DNA of 64,000 nt from Cytidiella melzeri (taxonomy: Eukaryota > Basidiomycota > Agaricomycetes > Polyporales > Irpicaceae), in assembly GCA_022592445.1 (NCBI GenBank), contig JABYQR010000001.1, positions 310,001 through 374,000 of the forward strand, in the 5' to 3' direction. Shown in pieces: positions 41,703 through 48,310 of this stretch (the first letter of the stretch is position 1; every line of letters starts with the position of its first letter). Under the pieces are notes generated by a model that was given only the letters and a program-made list of their open reading frames with translations, did not search any database and was not told the origin of the DNA. The translations under genes and the position numbers were made by a program.

Positions 41703-42497
41703 TTAGACCGAAACCATCTGGCCACGGAAACCGTCGCCGCGACGTGTTGAGGCGACGCCACGTATGGTAACCACAACCAACGCGAATGTGAAGAGGATAC
41801 TACAGATGATGTGGCTGTCAGTGACGTACATAGAAAGAATGATTGCACCGTACAATTCAATCCATGCAAAAGCTTCCGCTGCATTGAGCTGGTCGCAATA
41901 CGTTACGCCCAAGCTAAAGAATAATACATCAGCCGACTTCACCTTAAGGTGATCAACAACAAAGACACGTACCCGCAGTTCAATCCTCCACCCAAAGTCT
42001 GCGTAATAGCGGCGGCACCAGCAGTCCAGAATATCCATGTGATGAACATGCTGTAATGAACGTGAGCATATTTCGACTAATTTTACGAATACAAGCGATA
42101 AGCACTCACAATACTCCATGGCTTCCCACGCTGGTCAATACAGACCCAGAGGATGCGGAGTGGAGGAAGAGTAGCATATAGAGGAACGAGAAGAAGATTG
42201 TCCAAATGGATGCGAATAATAGGAATCGTGTGCGGTCGCGTTCATCGGTAGAGAAGTAATTGTGGTGAGCGTTGAAACGCGACACGAGCCAGGAAGTTAT
42301 TGCGAGCTAGACGAAGCAACTAAATCACTGACTACGTGGAGCCTCGCTGAGTTCACATACCTCGATTATGGCAATAGCAATTATTAGACCAAACGTGACT
42401 GGGCAACATAGCTCGTGTTTAGCGTCATTCGAGAGCCAAGCACGACACACAACTCACTTGGGTGTCCACGACGAATATGACGGTCATAGTCAGGCAT
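41703..42497 (-). CDS. Small four-helix MARVEL-type membrane protein
   Basis: Six short exons on the minus strand give about 169 residues. The start MPDYDRHIRRGHP matches the usual start of this Agaricomycete family, so I prefer the ATG at 42497 over an upstream in-frame ATG at 42656. TM1 is ITFGLIIAIAIIELAITSWL. Then come DERDRTRFLLFASIWTIFF (TM2), FMFITWIFWTAGAAAITQTL (TM3) with GGGLNCG and the conserved YCDQLNAAEAFAWIE, and FILFTFALVVVTIRG (TM4), ending GDGFRGQMVSV. Donor and acceptor at 41881-ish and 41813-ish give WIEF/ILF in frame. MARVEL proteins shape membranes or eisosome-like domains. The role here is not established. Confidence 0.8.
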
Positions 42498-42861: not shown

Positions 42862-44073
42862 TCACAGCCTTCGCTTCGTATCCTGCGACGTGGGACGTGC
42901 ATAATTTCCTCGCAGGGCGTCATGGTAGGAAGGAGGAGGGCCAGGCGGAGGGATGCTTGTTCCAGCCACAGCTGAAGTAGTAATCTGGGGTCTAGGCTCG
43001 GCTCGATTAGCGGCATTCGCTGTGGACGCAGTATGACCATGTGTGTCCGTTTGTTGAGGCATGTGTGACTAAATAATGTCAGCGATCTATTATTCGAAAC
43101 AAGGTATCAGACATACCGATGAACCTCGACGCGTCCTAGCATTCTTCTGCGCTCTCTGTAGCTCAGCGGTCTGCGGCTTGCCAGAACTTGCCGCGAATTG
43201 CTTTTCAAGCAACCTCACGGCCATGTTCAAGTCCACACTCGTCACAACCACAGGTTGAGGTGCTGCCTTCTGATGATAACCAAGCACACACCGCAGGGTC
43301 ACCCTCCATACGCATGTCACCACTCCTTGAGCATTCTGTCGAGCGAGATACTCAATCTCCAGAATGGGTCGGAACTCCTTATACTCCCGCTCCGAGACAG
43401 CCTCCTCCAACAACGTTTCAATACGCTTCGTGTCGAAAAGCGTGTGGCTGAATCTGCATGAAGGTCCCCATGTGCATACGCCTTCCGCGTGCGCTTTGCA
43501 TAGAGAAGGACGTTCAGGGTCTGGCTAGAGTTGTGATCAAAAAAAGTACAGTAATCAGCTGCCAATCTTCGGACCTGATGCTGACAGTGGGGTGACTGGG
43601 TGCGTCCTACAAGGGAAAAGACGTACCAATGCACTGCGCCCAAACACTCTGCCCTCCAAAATTCCCAACGCCACACCAGCTTGCGAACCTTGTCCCTTCA
43701 CAGGATACGTTGGCTGTACGCTCACGCTCTCCGCCCCAGCATCTAATGTCGCTCGCCCACCTCCACACAGTCGCATTCTCCACCACAACGCCCCCGCGTC
43801 TGTGAGACTCGACGACAAATCCGCCTGCGCAGAATATTTCGTGTACTCGATCAGGAATAGAGTCTGTTCCGATGGTTGGGCGCTTGTTGTGGCGGAGGTA
43901 TATGACGACGAGAAGGAAAGCTGCGAGACGTGTCCGACAAGGGAGACAATACGCGTGGTGTCTATGAGTGAGTGGTTATATTTGCAGGATGCGCCGCGAG
44001 TGCAATTGGCGTTAGCGGCGAAAGACCTGCATATCGACCACCTGCGGGTGTATTGAGGATTTGCTCCGGACAT
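42862..44073 (-). CDS. Tandem CCCH zinc-finger protein with dsRBD-like segments and PPxY motif, copy B
   Basis: Three exons (43627-44073, 43117-43524, 42862-43068), all phase 0, give 353 residues. Finger 1: CRSFAANANCTRGASCKYNH (C-x8-C-x5-C-x3-H), followed by SLIDTTRIV. After about 40 residues comes LIEYTKYSA ... WWRMRLCGGG ... GQGSQAGVALGILEG, which looks like a dsRNA-binding fold (strand, Trp strand, helix with spaced Ala). Finger 2: CKAHAEGVCTWGPSCRFSH (C-x7-C-x5-C-x3-H), then LFDTKRIE and a second similar segment (VWRVTLRCVLGY ... MAVRLLEKQF). The tail has PPGPPPSYHDAL, a PPxY motif for WW domains. No membrane helix. An RNA-binding role is inferred from the fingers. I recognise no named family with this order. 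Confidence 0.68.
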
Positions 44074-44797
44074 AGTAGCAGGCGTGGCTAGAGGTGCTGA
44101 TACTGAGATTCTGGTCAAAAGTAAACTCTTCAGGTGCAAAACATGGCTTACCTTAGGTTGTGGGGTGGTGGTAGTCCAACGAAAGGAGTTCGGTCTAGAG
44201 AGAAGCAGAGGCCCAGTGGCACATATGTACAGGCCGGAGTGTGGCACCGGCGCTGCCACACACATGACAGACAACGGTGCTGTGCTGACAACTGCAGGCT
44301 GGATTGTGTGAGTGTCCAGTGCGTCTATCAAAGGACATTTTGGACCCGTTGTGTCTGGCTTAAAGCGATACTAATGTGTGTTAGTGCGTCCGCATGTGTT
44401 GGTTGTGCATTTAATACCCTTCACTCACCAAGCAATACACGCGCAATTGTGCTGTCCGTCCTAGCTATTGCGTATGAGACAGTGGGTTTCTCGAGCGGGA
44501 CGAGGTTATCAGGATGCGATGTCCTCCGAGGAGGAAGGAGATGCCAGTTATGTTCGCCTCCTGCCGAAACTTGCCGAAGTGAATGAAGCCAGCGCTGGCC
44601 TCAGCTGCCTGGTCCTGCATAGTGGTTTGGTAGTAAAAGTACGTATATGTGCACAGCCTACTATACACGGAATAGGACATGTACAATGGTTACAACTCTT
44701 ACATGGAAATCAAACGATGCAGAACAAGTGGGAACCGGCAGTCGCAGATACTTACAGAGTCCAATACGACAACCCCGTCAAGGCAATTCTCCAACTC
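44074..44797. other. Spacer between the two CCCH genes
   Basis: Promoter of copy B and 3' flank of copy A. Open frames here have no motif or splice support. Confidence 0.45.
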
Positions 44798-46134
44798 TCA
44801 GCAGGTAGTTTCCGTGCAGGGAAGTGTGATAACGACAATAAAAACCCAGGATATAGCGGCAATCATAACTAACGCCATGAACTGCAACACCAAAGGAGTG
44901 CCCTGACTGTCCTCAGACCGCGGACACAAGGATGTTACGGGTGAGGGGAGAGCCTGCCTGGAGCTCGAGCTCTGCGGAATATGCATGCGAGTCGGGTTGT
45001 TGATAGCGTTATAGGTGTTAATATACGCGCCGGGACTTGGCGCTAACAGAGGCCGGCGTTCGGATGACATTGCGCTATAGCCTGTCGGACGTGTACCATG
45101 GTGATTCGACAATGCTGGAGTTGTTGCAGATAAACTCATATAGGAAGACGGAGCGACTGATACATATGCGGAGCGAACCGAAGAATGGCGGTGAGAGGAT
45201 TGCACAGAACTTGTCAAATGCGGCGCAGGAGGCGGGATGGTGCTAGAAGTGAAGGTGGCATCAACGACGGAGCGATAACTCGGAAGTTGGGCAGAAGTGG
45301 CGGCTGCGTAGCTCGGAGGGTTATCAGAGCCAGGCGCTGGAGTAGTAAGGCTGGTGTTCGAGTCCCTCTGGCCAGGCACTGGTCTGAAGTCAATGACTGG
45401 GGTGTCGGAGAGTCGCTGTTCGGCAACGGTCATGGCGGTGCCCAGATGCGCATCTGCAACAACTTGCGTCGCATAACTGCTGCCCTGCAAGAGCTCAAAC
45501 GCAACAACCCATTGCTTTCCACTACAGATGTACGTGATGCGGACATCCGAGTTATTGCCCGATGCCTGGAAGAGCCTCTTGGCGAAGGCCTCGACGCGCT
45601 TTGTGTCGAACAAATCGTGCCTATAGCGACACGTCGACCCATCCAGGCAGCGGTGCTCAAGATGTTTCTTGCAGATGGTAGACGAAGCACCCCTTACTTC
45701 CTGAGCCCACAAAGATAGTTAGTGTCTCTCATACTTTCATTAGTCATTGCGAGAAAGAAATAACTGACAGGTAGCGGCTTCCCATACACATGACCTTCGA
45801 CAGCCTTTGCGGCCTCGACAGCATTATGACCCTGTCGTTTGAAAGGACGTTGGCCTCCGTAAATACTCACTGCCCATCCTTCGTTCCGAGTATTACGAGA
45901 GGTGTCGCTAGATATAATGCTGTACTCCAGCACCAAACGAGCTTGATTGGAGGTAACACCTATGAAAGCATGTTGAGCAAGTCGCACAAGTCTCGTGGTG
46001 TCGACAATCGTGTGGCTGAAACGGCAACCCGAATGCCAATGGCGGCCTCTGTGGCGGCAGCATCCGCGGGCGAAATTCAGGCACATTGTGCGGCGTGCGT
46101 AGTCGTCGTAGTCCTCGTCGTCGCTGCGTCTCAT
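44798..46134 (-). CDS. Tandem CCCH zinc-finger protein with PPxY motifs and C-terminal membrane helix, copy A
   Basis: Two exons (45769-46134 and 44798-45700) give 422 residues. Start MRRSDDEDYDDY. Finger 1 is CLNFARGCCRHRGRHWHSGC then RFSH, with a longer middle spacing than usual. It is followed by TIVDTTRLV and a dsRBD-like segment (VLEYSIISS ... GWAVSIYGG ... GHNAVEAAKAVEG). Finger 2 is CKKHLEHRCLDGSTCRYRH (C-x7-C-x5-C-x3-H), then LFDTKRVE and WVVAFELLQG ... GTAMTVAEQRL. The long Ser/Pro linker contains NPPSYAA (PPxY). Near the end is one hydrophobic helix (LVLQFMALVMIAAISWVFIV), suggesting a tail anchor that would hold the zinc fingers at a membrane. Copy B lacks it. Paralogous to the gene at 42862 and in the same orientation. 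Confidence 0.68.
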
Positions 46135-46520: not shown

Positions 46521-48310
46521 ATGTCCCAATCATCCCTGTCGTCGGTGGTATCCAACTTGGTTCGGGCATCGATGGGGTCATCTGTTTCGAGCTCTGTTGT
46601 CGACGAAGATCTTGACCGCCACGTTGCGGAGCTCATCTTGAAGGAGGCAAAGCAGAAAGCTGAGAAGTACGCGAAGGAAGGCATTCGGGCTTATCTGCCA
46701 CAGTACGCTTAAGTTTTACCTTCGTATATGACTCGATATTCATGTTGTGTTACAGGCCAGAAGCCAACGTTCCCAAGACAAACAAGCGGTTCCTTTCTTC
46801 AATCATACGGAACACGGATGACCACAACAAGACTATACTTCGTGCACAGGCTCTCGCTGCTCAAGAAGCGAGAATGGAGCGTTTAGAACAAGAGAAGCAA
46901 GAAAGGAGAGCTAGAGCAGAGGAGGCTGTCGAGGCCGAACGGCTAAGAAGGTTGACGGGTGGAAGTGTGTCGATGAGGTCGAGGCGTAGGGACAGAGAGG
47001 AGAGAACAATTAGGAAACGGAGAGAGCGAAGCTGGGAGAGGCGCAGCGTCGACGACGAAGACCGGAGCAGCAGGAAAGCCAAAGGCAGAGCGGTCGACAG
47101 AGTGGAGAGTGATGATAGGCGACGCCGCCATTCGCGCTCTCCTCATCGAAATGAACAGTCCAGCCACCATTCGCGACGGCATAGGAGAGACAAGGAGGAA
47201 CCGTGGAGCAGGTCTAGAGCTCGTTCAGTATCAGACAATGGCTCAGCGGATGAAGACGATAGGTATCGTGACCACCACCACGATGAGCGACTAGCTCCGC
47301 GTGACTCCAGGCGACAGAAGAGCCATGATCGCCGCCGTAGCATGTCAACTGAAGGGGAGTACTCAAACCATAGGAAAAGGAGAAGACGCAGTCGGACAAT
47401 GTCTCCTGTCAGGTCTGCTGAAGATGAGCCCCGTAGGGAAAGCAGGTCTCACCGATCCCGCCGTCATAAGTGGCGCCGTACTCCTTCACCCGTGTATTCT
47501 GAGGATTCTCGAACGGCATCTGACAGTCGCTCTCGTCGCCATAAGAAGGATACGGATTTACCAGAAGAAAACATTCCTGACACCCCATGTTTGCGAAATG
47601 AACGATCTCGTTCCCATTCACCGGCAGCTGAATTCGACGATACGGACGCCTCACTAATTCATACCACTGTGACTCCTACAGCTGCGGACATATATAAGTC
47701 GAAGGACGAACGGTCAGTCCTTGCTGGGACGTCGAACCGTTCTTCACCGAAGCTCTCACAAAGTACGAGTCCCAGGGGATCTTCTCGGTCTCAAAGGGAA
47801 CAAGCAGAAACAGGACCTTCCTCGTCACGACCCTCACCGCCCCCGCGATGCCCGTCTCTTTCTCCCGGACCCCCTCCTCCACCCACTACAAAGTCTAAGT
47901 CTTCACGCCACCATTCTCGATCGTCGAAACCCGCTCCCCCTCCCCCTTCCAACGCACCTCCTCCACTTCCTTCTCACCTTCCATCGAAGATGGACAGGTA
48001 CTTCGAAGAGTCCTACGACCCACGTCTAGACGTTGCACCTCTAAGCGCTCCAAGCATCCCGGCTACAGGGCTCATCAGCGATGCCGAGTTTGCTGGATGG
48101 GACGCCATGCTCGAGCTCATACGACAGCGACGCGAAGATAAAGAGGAACGGAAGAGACTTGAACGTTGGGGCGTCGGCAAGGATCAGGACACGGACAAGA
48201 AGAAGAAGAAGGTTGTAGAAGCAACAGAGAATACAGTCGACATAATGGCTATAGAGTACAAGAAGCGAGGCGCTGTACGGGAATGGGACCTGGGGAAAGA
48301 GGGATTCTAG
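46521..48310 (+). CDS. RS/RD-rich nuclear protein, probably splicing-related
   Basis: Two exons (46521-46702 and 46756-48310) give 578 residues. The N-terminal domain DRHVAELILKEAKQKAEKYA, then YLPQPEANVPKTNKRFLSSI and IRNTDDHNK, looks conserved. A charged coiled coil follows (ARMERLEQEKQERRARAEEA). The middle is rich in Arg-Ser and Arg-Asp dipeptides with SRSPHR and RSRSHSP phosphosites, as in nuclear-speckle proteins. A Pro-rich segment leads to a second compact block, YFEESYDPRLDVAPLS, with GWDAMLELIRQRREDK and IEYKKRGAVREWDLGKEGF. I recognise the ends as conserved-looking but cannot give a family name. A splicing role is inferred from composition only. Confidence 0.65.

What the first reader, a model, noticed from the sequence alone, without database searches (positions are those of the whole stretch)
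42862..46134. Tandem gene pair with a repeated CCCH-finger plus dsRBD-like unit, PPxY motifs and, in one copy, a tail anchor
Seen: two neighbouring genes each encode two CCCH fingers, and each finger is followed by a D-T-(T/K)-R-(V/I/L) step and a segment with a Trp strand and an Ala-spaced helix. The four units align with one another, so an ancestral unit was duplicated inside a gene and then the gene was duplicated. Both tails carry PPSY, and only copy A has a C-terminal hydrophobic helix. Known: CCCH fingers often bind RNA, and PPxY binds WW domains such as Rsp5-type ubiquitin ligases. Inference: membrane-tethered and soluble RNA-binding adaptors, possibly in RNA surveillance or RNA-virus defence. 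I know of no described family with this order.
Basis: partly seen in the sequence, partly recalled or inferred. Interest (0 to 1): 0.78.

Follow-up and report, generated by a model that had tools for sequence, protein, structure and literature searches.

The report
Paired fungal zinc-finger adaptor-like proteins
Two neighbouring genes of a wood-decay fungus encode sister proteins built from the same doubled zinc-finger unit, one apparently free in the cell and one apparently anchored in a membrane; they form a small undescribed family that may link RNA to ubiquitin tagging, which remains to be shown.

Summary
Two minus-strand genes (A 46134-44798, B 44073-42862) are diverged tandem copies. Each has two units: a CCCH finger, a DxxR step, then a segment predicted as alpha-beta-beta-beta-alpha. 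With fingers left out, pooled unit 1 matches unit 2 better than all 200 column shuffles. Gene A equals an annotated Cytidiella melzeri protein. Named relatives came only from Irpicaceae and Phanerochaetaceae.

"dsRBD" is half right: the topology fits, but no dsRBD profile matched and a KKxAK-like motif is in 0 of 32 units. The modelled halves seem to pack into one platform, with only weak likeness to SRP9/14, TldD/E and MHC-I.

B keeps PPP[SP]Y and KRxL ends in 8 of 8 intact tails.

Best reading: a soluble and a vacuole/endosome-tethered adaptor joining an RNA-binding-like module to Rsp5. Fingers are canonical in B, eroded in A. RNA binding, Rsp5 binding, localisation and any antiviral role are untested.

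The parts
44798..46134 (-). Gene A (tail-anchored copy), CDS with one intron 45768-45701; 422 aa
   Evidence: Splice model; identical to BC835DRAFT_1409787, Cytidiella melzeri
42862..44073 (-). Gene B (soluble copy), CDS with introns 43626-43525 and 43116-43069; 353 aa
   Evidence: Splice model; 63% identical over 100% of its length to Irpex rosettiformis P0005
46012..46083 (-). A finger 1 (C-C-C-H with a 6-residue insert)
45775..46011 (-). A unit 1, predicted alpha-beta-beta-beta-alpha
   Evidence: AlphaFold2 model of P0001; profile match to B unit 1, score 50.7
45617..45673 (-). A finger 2 (C-x7-C-x5-C-x3-H; aromatic after the third Cys kept in 1 of 4 A-type proteins)
45404..45616 (-). A unit 2, predicted alpha-beta-beta-beta-alpha
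45308..45319 (-). A PPSY (PY motif)
   Evidence: kept in 4 of 4 A tails
45275..45286 (-). A LPSY (second PY motif, LPxY)
   Evidence: LPxY in 4 of 4 A tails, LPHY in P0003
45044..45061 (-). A ERRPLL, acidic proline-dileucine [DE]xxxL[LI]
   Evidence: identical in 4 of 4 A tails although the stretch before it is 18-52% identical
44825..44893 (-). A C-terminal hydrophobic helix (aa 392-414), tail anchor
   Evidence: hydropathy 2.74; helix 392-414 in the model; 71-91% identity of aa 389-422 among A-type proteins
43972..44031 (-). B finger 1, C-x8-C-x5-C-x3-H
   Evidence: zf-CCCH PF00642 42 bits for the protein, cut-off 20.5
43636..43971 (-). B unit 1, predicted alpha-beta(3)-alpha with an extra hairpin
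   Evidence: model of orthologue P0005
43444..43500 (-). B finger 2, C-x7-C-x5-C-x3-H
43198..43443 (-). B unit 2, predicted alpha-beta-beta-beta-alpha
   Evidence: model of orthologue P0005
42925..42939 (-). B PPPSY (PY motif)
   Evidence: PPP[SP]Y in 8 of 8 B-type rows with an intact tail, of 16 B-type rows
42865..42876 (-). B C-terminal KRRL (KRxL)
   Evidence: 8 of 8 intact tails

Best explanation
A and B are paralogous adaptor proteins of a small Polyporales family. Each carries two CCCH fingers on two alpha-beta-beta-beta-alpha lobes that probably close into one pseudo-symmetric platform (predicted), reads RNA with the fingers (inferred from finger type, for B mainly), and recruits the Nedd4/Rsp5-type E3 through conserved PY motifs (inferred). 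B is soluble. A is tail-anchored with the RNA-binding-like part in the cytosol (inferred from topology) and carries an acidic proline-dileucine that should send it by the AP-3 route to the vacuole or late endosome (inferred). The pair would therefore couple the same module to Rsp5 in the cytosol and at the endolysosomal membrane, for sorting or turnover of RNA-protein complexes.
For: Unit homology; model topology; zf-CCCH over cut-off in B with the aromatic after the third Cys in 24 of 24 B-type fingers; PPP[SP]Y in 8 of 8 B tails, PPSY plus LPxY plus ERRPLL plus anchor in 4 of 4 A tails; TM block 71-91% identical against 33-38% for unit 1 and 35-89% for unit 2; the same genome holds three WW domains directly upstream of a HECT domain on contig C714. 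Parallels seen in passages: Rcr1/Rcr2 carry PPSY and VPEY and bind Rsp5 (PMC5578492); Ypq1 EQQPLL and PQLC2 EREPLL are AP-3 signals, with proline before the leucines typical (PMC4649669); tail SNARE Vam3 uses a dileucine for AP-3 (PMC8591511).
Against: No binding or localisation data. PY and dileucine motifs in a single sequence are not rare: in shuffled A tails PPxY occurs in 11%, LPxY in 5%, the dileucine in 3%, so the argument is conservation over only four A tails, two of them (P0002, P0004) close to each other. A's fingers fall under Pfam cut-offs and finger 2 has lost its aromatic in 3 of 4. The two-unit core is not strongly basic (pI 6.9-8.8 in B-type, 6.7-9.3 in A-type).
Confidence: 0.42

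Rival explanations
1. A has lost RNA binding and is now a membrane Rsp5 adaptor of the Rcr1/Rcr2 or Commissureless kind: the tail is the working part and the unit region binds a membrane cargo or another protein. B alone may bind RNA.
For: A's fingers are non-canonical, its unit region evolves fast while the tail is kept, the Arg positions of the Trp strand kept in B (WRMRL or WRMKL, WRVTLR) are gone in most A-type units.
Against: All C and H ligand positions are still present in the A-type fingers read; DxxR and Trp are kept in 8 of 8 A-type units, so the fold is under constraint.
Confidence: 0.28
2. The units are true, degenerate double-stranded-RNA-binding domains, and the proteins sense dsRNA.
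For: alpha-beta-beta-beta-alpha topology; a dsRBD protein, TARBP2 chain 7zpk_C, is among Foldseek's list for A (rank 19, E 0.078, prob 0.12, rmsd 27.8).
Against: No dsrm profile hit, KKxAK-like motif in 0 of 32 units, matches that span both units as one body.
Confidence: 0.12
3. Zinc-finger protein-interaction scaffold without RNA function in either copy; PY motifs mediate its own ubiquitylation and turnover.
For: Weakly charged core, no catalytic domain in Pfam, restricted distribution.
Against: Canonical CCCH spacing and conserved aromatics in B are those of RNA-reading fingers (family knowledge, recalled).
Confidence: 0.18

Closest known systems
Rcr1/Rcr2 (yeast) and Commissureless/PRRG (animals)
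   Same: Single TM protein with a PPxY plus an [LV]PxY motif that recruits a Nedd4/Rsp5 ligase and works in endosomal sorting (passages of PMC5578492)
   Different: No CCCH fingers or alpha-beta units known to me in those (recalled); in A the anchor is at the very C-terminus and the PY motifs precede it
ZAP-S / ZAP-L (ZC3HAV1)
   Same: CCCH protein in a cytosolic and an endolysosome/ER-membrane form (passages of PMC10747524)
   Different: ZAP forms are isoforms of one gene and ZAP-L is farnesylated, with a PARP domain; here two genes, a hydrophobic anchor and no PARP domain. A likeness of layout, not shown descent; PF22628 ZAP-like finger hits 2 of 20 relatives weakly (best E 0.0037)
SRP9/SRP14 Alu-binding heterodimer
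   Same: Two alpha-beta-beta-beta-alpha subunits in one pseudo-symmetric saddle (passage of PMC8230904); 1914 is Foldseek rank 7 for A, prob 0.94, E 0.0053
   Different: TM 0.19/0.39 and rmsd 12.7 over 203 columns, so weak; no SRP14/SRP9 profile hit; the genome has a separate SRP14 gene; SRP9/14 lacks zinc fingers (recalled)
dsRBD proteins
   Same: alpha-beta-beta-beta-alpha order
   Different: no profile hit, no KKxAK
CPSF30/CPSF4, tristetraprolin and other tandem CCCH proteins
   Same: finger type; CPSF4 is the best solved-structure hit of the A core (E 0.0006), a trypanosomal finger protein 6nzl of the B core (E 0.00065)
   Different: hits cover the finger regions only; the lobes between and after the fingers, PY motifs and anchor are absent there

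Membership tests
CCCH zinc-finger proteins | C-x(7-9)-C-x(4-6)-C-x3-H fingers over the Pfam cut-off | tested here: met
   B: PF00642 42 bits (cut-off 20.5), PF18044 42.9 bits (cut-off 24.6), two stretches each. For copy A alone this is not met: only Torus 25.3 bits, cut-off 29
dsRBD (PF00035) | alpha-beta-beta-beta-alpha topology | tested here: met
   Both units of A and unit 2 of the B orthologue; B unit 1 has an extra hairpin
dsRBD (PF00035) | sequence match to the dsrm profile | tested here: not met
   0 of 10 unit segments at E<=10, 0 of 20 relatives at E<=0.1; filters drop most matches above about 0.1. The genome has 2 other dsrm loci
dsRBD (PF00035) | KKxAK dsRNA-contact motif in helix 2 (recalled) | tested here: not met
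   [KR][KR]x[AS][KR] in 0 of 32 unit segments
dsRBD (PF00035) | structural match to solved dsRBDs | tested here: inconclusive
   7zpk_C (TARBP2) rank 19, prob 0.12; no unit was folded or searched alone
SRP9/14 | two alpha-beta-beta-beta-alpha subunits forming one curved sheet | tested here: inconclusive
SRP9/14 | SRP14 (PF02290) or SRP9-21 profile match | tested here: not met
   no hit; SRP14 found on another contig, C106
PY-motif adaptors of Nedd4/Rsp5 ligases | conserved PPxY/LPxY in a disordered cytosolic segment | tested here: met
   8 of 8 intact B tails, 4 of 4 A tails; those segments have pLDDT under 50
PY-motif adaptors of Nedd4/Rsp5 ligases | binding to Rsp5 WW domains and ubiquitylation of a partner | not testable with these tools
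   an Rsp5-like gene, three WW then HECT, is present on C714
Tail-anchored proteins (A) | single hydrophobic helix near the C-terminus | tested here: met
   the highest 19-residue hydropathy of P0001 is 2.74, at 397 of 422 residues; helix 392-414. Membrane insertion not tested
AP-3 cargo | [DE]xxxL[LI], often with Pro before the leucines | tested here: met
   ERRPLL in 4 of 4 A tails; pattern from passages of PMC4649669
AP-3 cargo | AP-3-dependent vacuolar localisation | not testable with these tools
   needs microscopy

The most novel reading that the evidence does not exclude
A new architecture of RNA-reading protein: two CCCH fingers displayed on a covalent, SRP9/14-like pseudo-dimer made by internal duplication, present as a soluble gene and a tandem sister that acquired an Rsp5-recruiting, AP-3-routed tail anchor, so that the fungus can bring chosen RNAs to the vacuolar or endosomal membrane for ubiquitin-linked disposal or sorting (cellular or mycoviral RNA).
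Probability: 0.18. Interest if true: 0.78.

Novelty: new variant of a known kind. Interest (0 to 1): 0.5.

Why it matters
RNA-binding proteins that recruit a Nedd4-type ligase at a vacuolar or endosomal membrane would give fungi a direct route from RNA recognition to membrane sorting; I found no paper holding rsp5, rna-binding protein, ppxy and mrna decay together. The soluble and anchored pair is a natural experiment: the same module with and without a membrane tail, next to each other, in a laboratory-tractable fungal group. It also gives an orphan Polyporales family a fold, a motif set and testable partners.

Tried and rejected
Whole-protein dsRBD reading: rejected for lack of profile hits and of KKxAK; only the topology remains.

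Known Pfam family over the whole protein: none found. Torus, DUS3L and PARP12-type hits cover finger stretches only. ECSIT_N and MASE4 each hit 1 of 20 relatives; I did not follow them and suspect read-through ends or chance.

Third paralogue or a donor of A's tail in the genome: protein searches with B, the A core and the A tail found only A and B, plus weak matches on C501 (E 0.65) and C76 (E 0.30). I read the ORFs at C76 and took it as chance; C501 was not read.

Dating the duplication by tree: A is one clade (100/100) but on long branches, rooted at the midpoint only, so the tree (11 rows, 10 of the 21 rows at hand left out as partial or finger-only) cannot say whether A arose inside Irpicaceae or was lost in Phanerochaetaceae.

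Net charge as evidence for RNA binding: not supportive.

Paper searches on CCCH with dsRBD in fungi (4 papers, listing only), CCCH in Phanerochaete (0), tail-anchored CCCH proteins (15 papers, 12 listed, listing only) and Rsp5 with RNA-binding proteins and mRNA decay (0) showed nothing on this family. The library holds open-licence papers only.

Full report
Where and what. The window belongs to a 49.7-Mb genome; gene A equals protein BC835DRAFT_1409787 of Cytidiella melzeri, a Polyporales species of the family Irpicaceae. Gene A runs 46134-44798 and gene B 44073-42862, both on the minus strand, 724 bases apart. A has one intron (45768-45701), B has two (43626-43525, 43116-43069). My B model has no identical entry, so the public annotation may lack it or model it otherwise; it aligns over its whole length with Irpex rosettiformis P0005 at 63% identity.

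Relatives. A search with A gave 4 proteins at E<=10, itself included; a search with B gave 14; a profile of 10 A- and B-type rows gave 16 at E<=0.1, of which P0021 (E 0.03) matches over 7% of the query and looks finger-only. In all there are 5 A-type (P0001-P0004, P0020) and 16 B-type rows (window B, P0005-P0019). Named sources: Cytidiella and Irpex (Irpicaceae) for A and B, Phanerochaete carnosa, P. sordida and Phlebiopsis gigantea (Phanerochaetaceae) for B only. The search needs shared 5-residue words and scored only the best 7993 candidates, so absence elsewhere is not proven. P0003 and P0005 (both Irpex rosettiformis, longest contig 3,077,710) and P0002 and P0013 (both JGI, 8,067) share contig lengths, so the tandem is probably kept in at least two other genomes; this is inferred from lengths, contig names were not shown.

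Unit homology. I cut out the segments after each finger (A unit 1: 4 rows, A unit 2: 4, B unit 1: 13, B unit 2: 11) and compared profiles. A1-B1 scores 50.7 and A2-B2 40.9, each with 0 of 200 column shuffles as high; pooled unit 1 v unit 2 scores 33.7 over 80 columns against a shuffle maximum of 19.4 (0 of 200), and 11.4 against the reversed profile. Single comparisons are weaker: A1-A2 17.2 (1 of 200), B1-B2 21.3 (0), A1-B2 25.5 (0), A2-B1 19.5 over only 18 columns (1 of 200). So the gene duplication is clear and the internal duplication is supported mainly by the pooled profiles and by a shared signature: Asp or Asn four residues after the finger His in 31 of 32 units, Arg at seven and a hydrophobic residue at eight in 32 of 32, and W-x-[VMLI]-x-[LVIF] in 32 of 32.

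Fingers. B's fingers are canonical and pass Pfam cut-offs; an aromatic residue two after the third Cys is kept in 13 of 13 and 11 of 11 B-type fingers. A finger 1 keeps it in 4 of 4, A finger 2 in 1 of 4, and A reaches no CCCH cut-off. RNA reading is thus likely for B and doubtful for A finger 2. The two-unit core is near neutral to mildly basic, which is no help.

Tails. A's tail is its best kept part: residues 389-422 are 71-91% identical in the six pairs of four A-type proteins, the ERRPLL-TYNAI block 58-88%, unit 1 33-38% (three rows), unit 2 35-89%, the linker 18-52%. It holds PPSY, LPxY, ERRPLL and a hydrophobic helix in 4 of 4; P0002 and P0004 are close to each other, so these are nearer three independent sequences. 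By shuffling, one tail would hold PPxY in 11%, LPxY in 5% and the dileucine in 3% of cases; conservation carries the argument. B keeps PPP[SP]Y and a C-terminal KRxL in 8 of 8 rows with an intact tail, out of 16 B-type rows; the other 8 end in unspliced or cut stretches. The tail gives no Pfam hit at E<=0.1 and no second copy in the genome.

Mechanism. PY pairs of this kind recruit Nedd4/Rsp5 in Rcr1/Rcr2 and Commissureless (passages, PMC5578492), and the genome has three WW domains at C714:80743-81300 followed by HECT pieces at C714:81618-82615. Proline-dileucines EQQPLL and EREPLL steer Ypq1 and PQLC2 by AP-3 to the vacuole or lysosome (passages, PMC4649669), and the SNARE Vam3 uses a dileucine for AP-3 (passages, PMC8591511; that Vam3 is tail-anchored is recalled). 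I therefore propose a soluble (B) and an endolysosome-tethered (A) adaptor built on one RNA-binding-like module. ZAP-S and ZAP-L are a likeness of layout: cytosolic against endolysosomal forms of a CCCH protein (passages, PMC10747524). Shown: genes, homology, motifs and their conservation. Predicted: fold and anchor. Inferred: RNA, Rsp5, AP-3, topology and purpose. Nothing here speaks directly to virus defence.

Rivals and verdict. The main rival is that A has dropped RNA binding and is a plain membrane Rsp5 adaptor; eroded fingers and a fast core favour it, retained ligand residues and fold signature speak against. The dsRBD reading and a pure protein-scaffold reading are less likely. The family looks undescribed within the searches made (Pfam). 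It is a new variant of a known kind: CCCH proteins and PY adaptors are known, this order and the paired soluble and anchored genes are not known to me.

Noticed in passing
window 42106-42306, minus strand: Downstream neighbour of B with a weak MARVEL-domain match (E 0.0017, under cut-off), probably one exon of a small membrane protein.
   Followed up: partly
window 46664-48307, plus strand: 548-codon open frame rich in Arg-Ser and Arg-Asp/Glu runs, on the plus strand upstream of gene A, perhaps sharing a divergent promoter region; no Pfam match at E<=0.1.
   Followed up: partly
P0011 (Phanerochaete sordida), C-terminal tail: PY motif is PPPPY instead of PPPSY.
   Followed up: no
P0003 (Irpex rosettiformis) finger 2: Spacing is shortened relative to the other A-type second fingers (C-N-A-R-C-C...), suggesting further erosion of A's second finger.
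   Followed up: no
window 42862-44073: No database protein identical to my B model although A has one, so the public gene set may lack or mis-model B.
   Followed up: no
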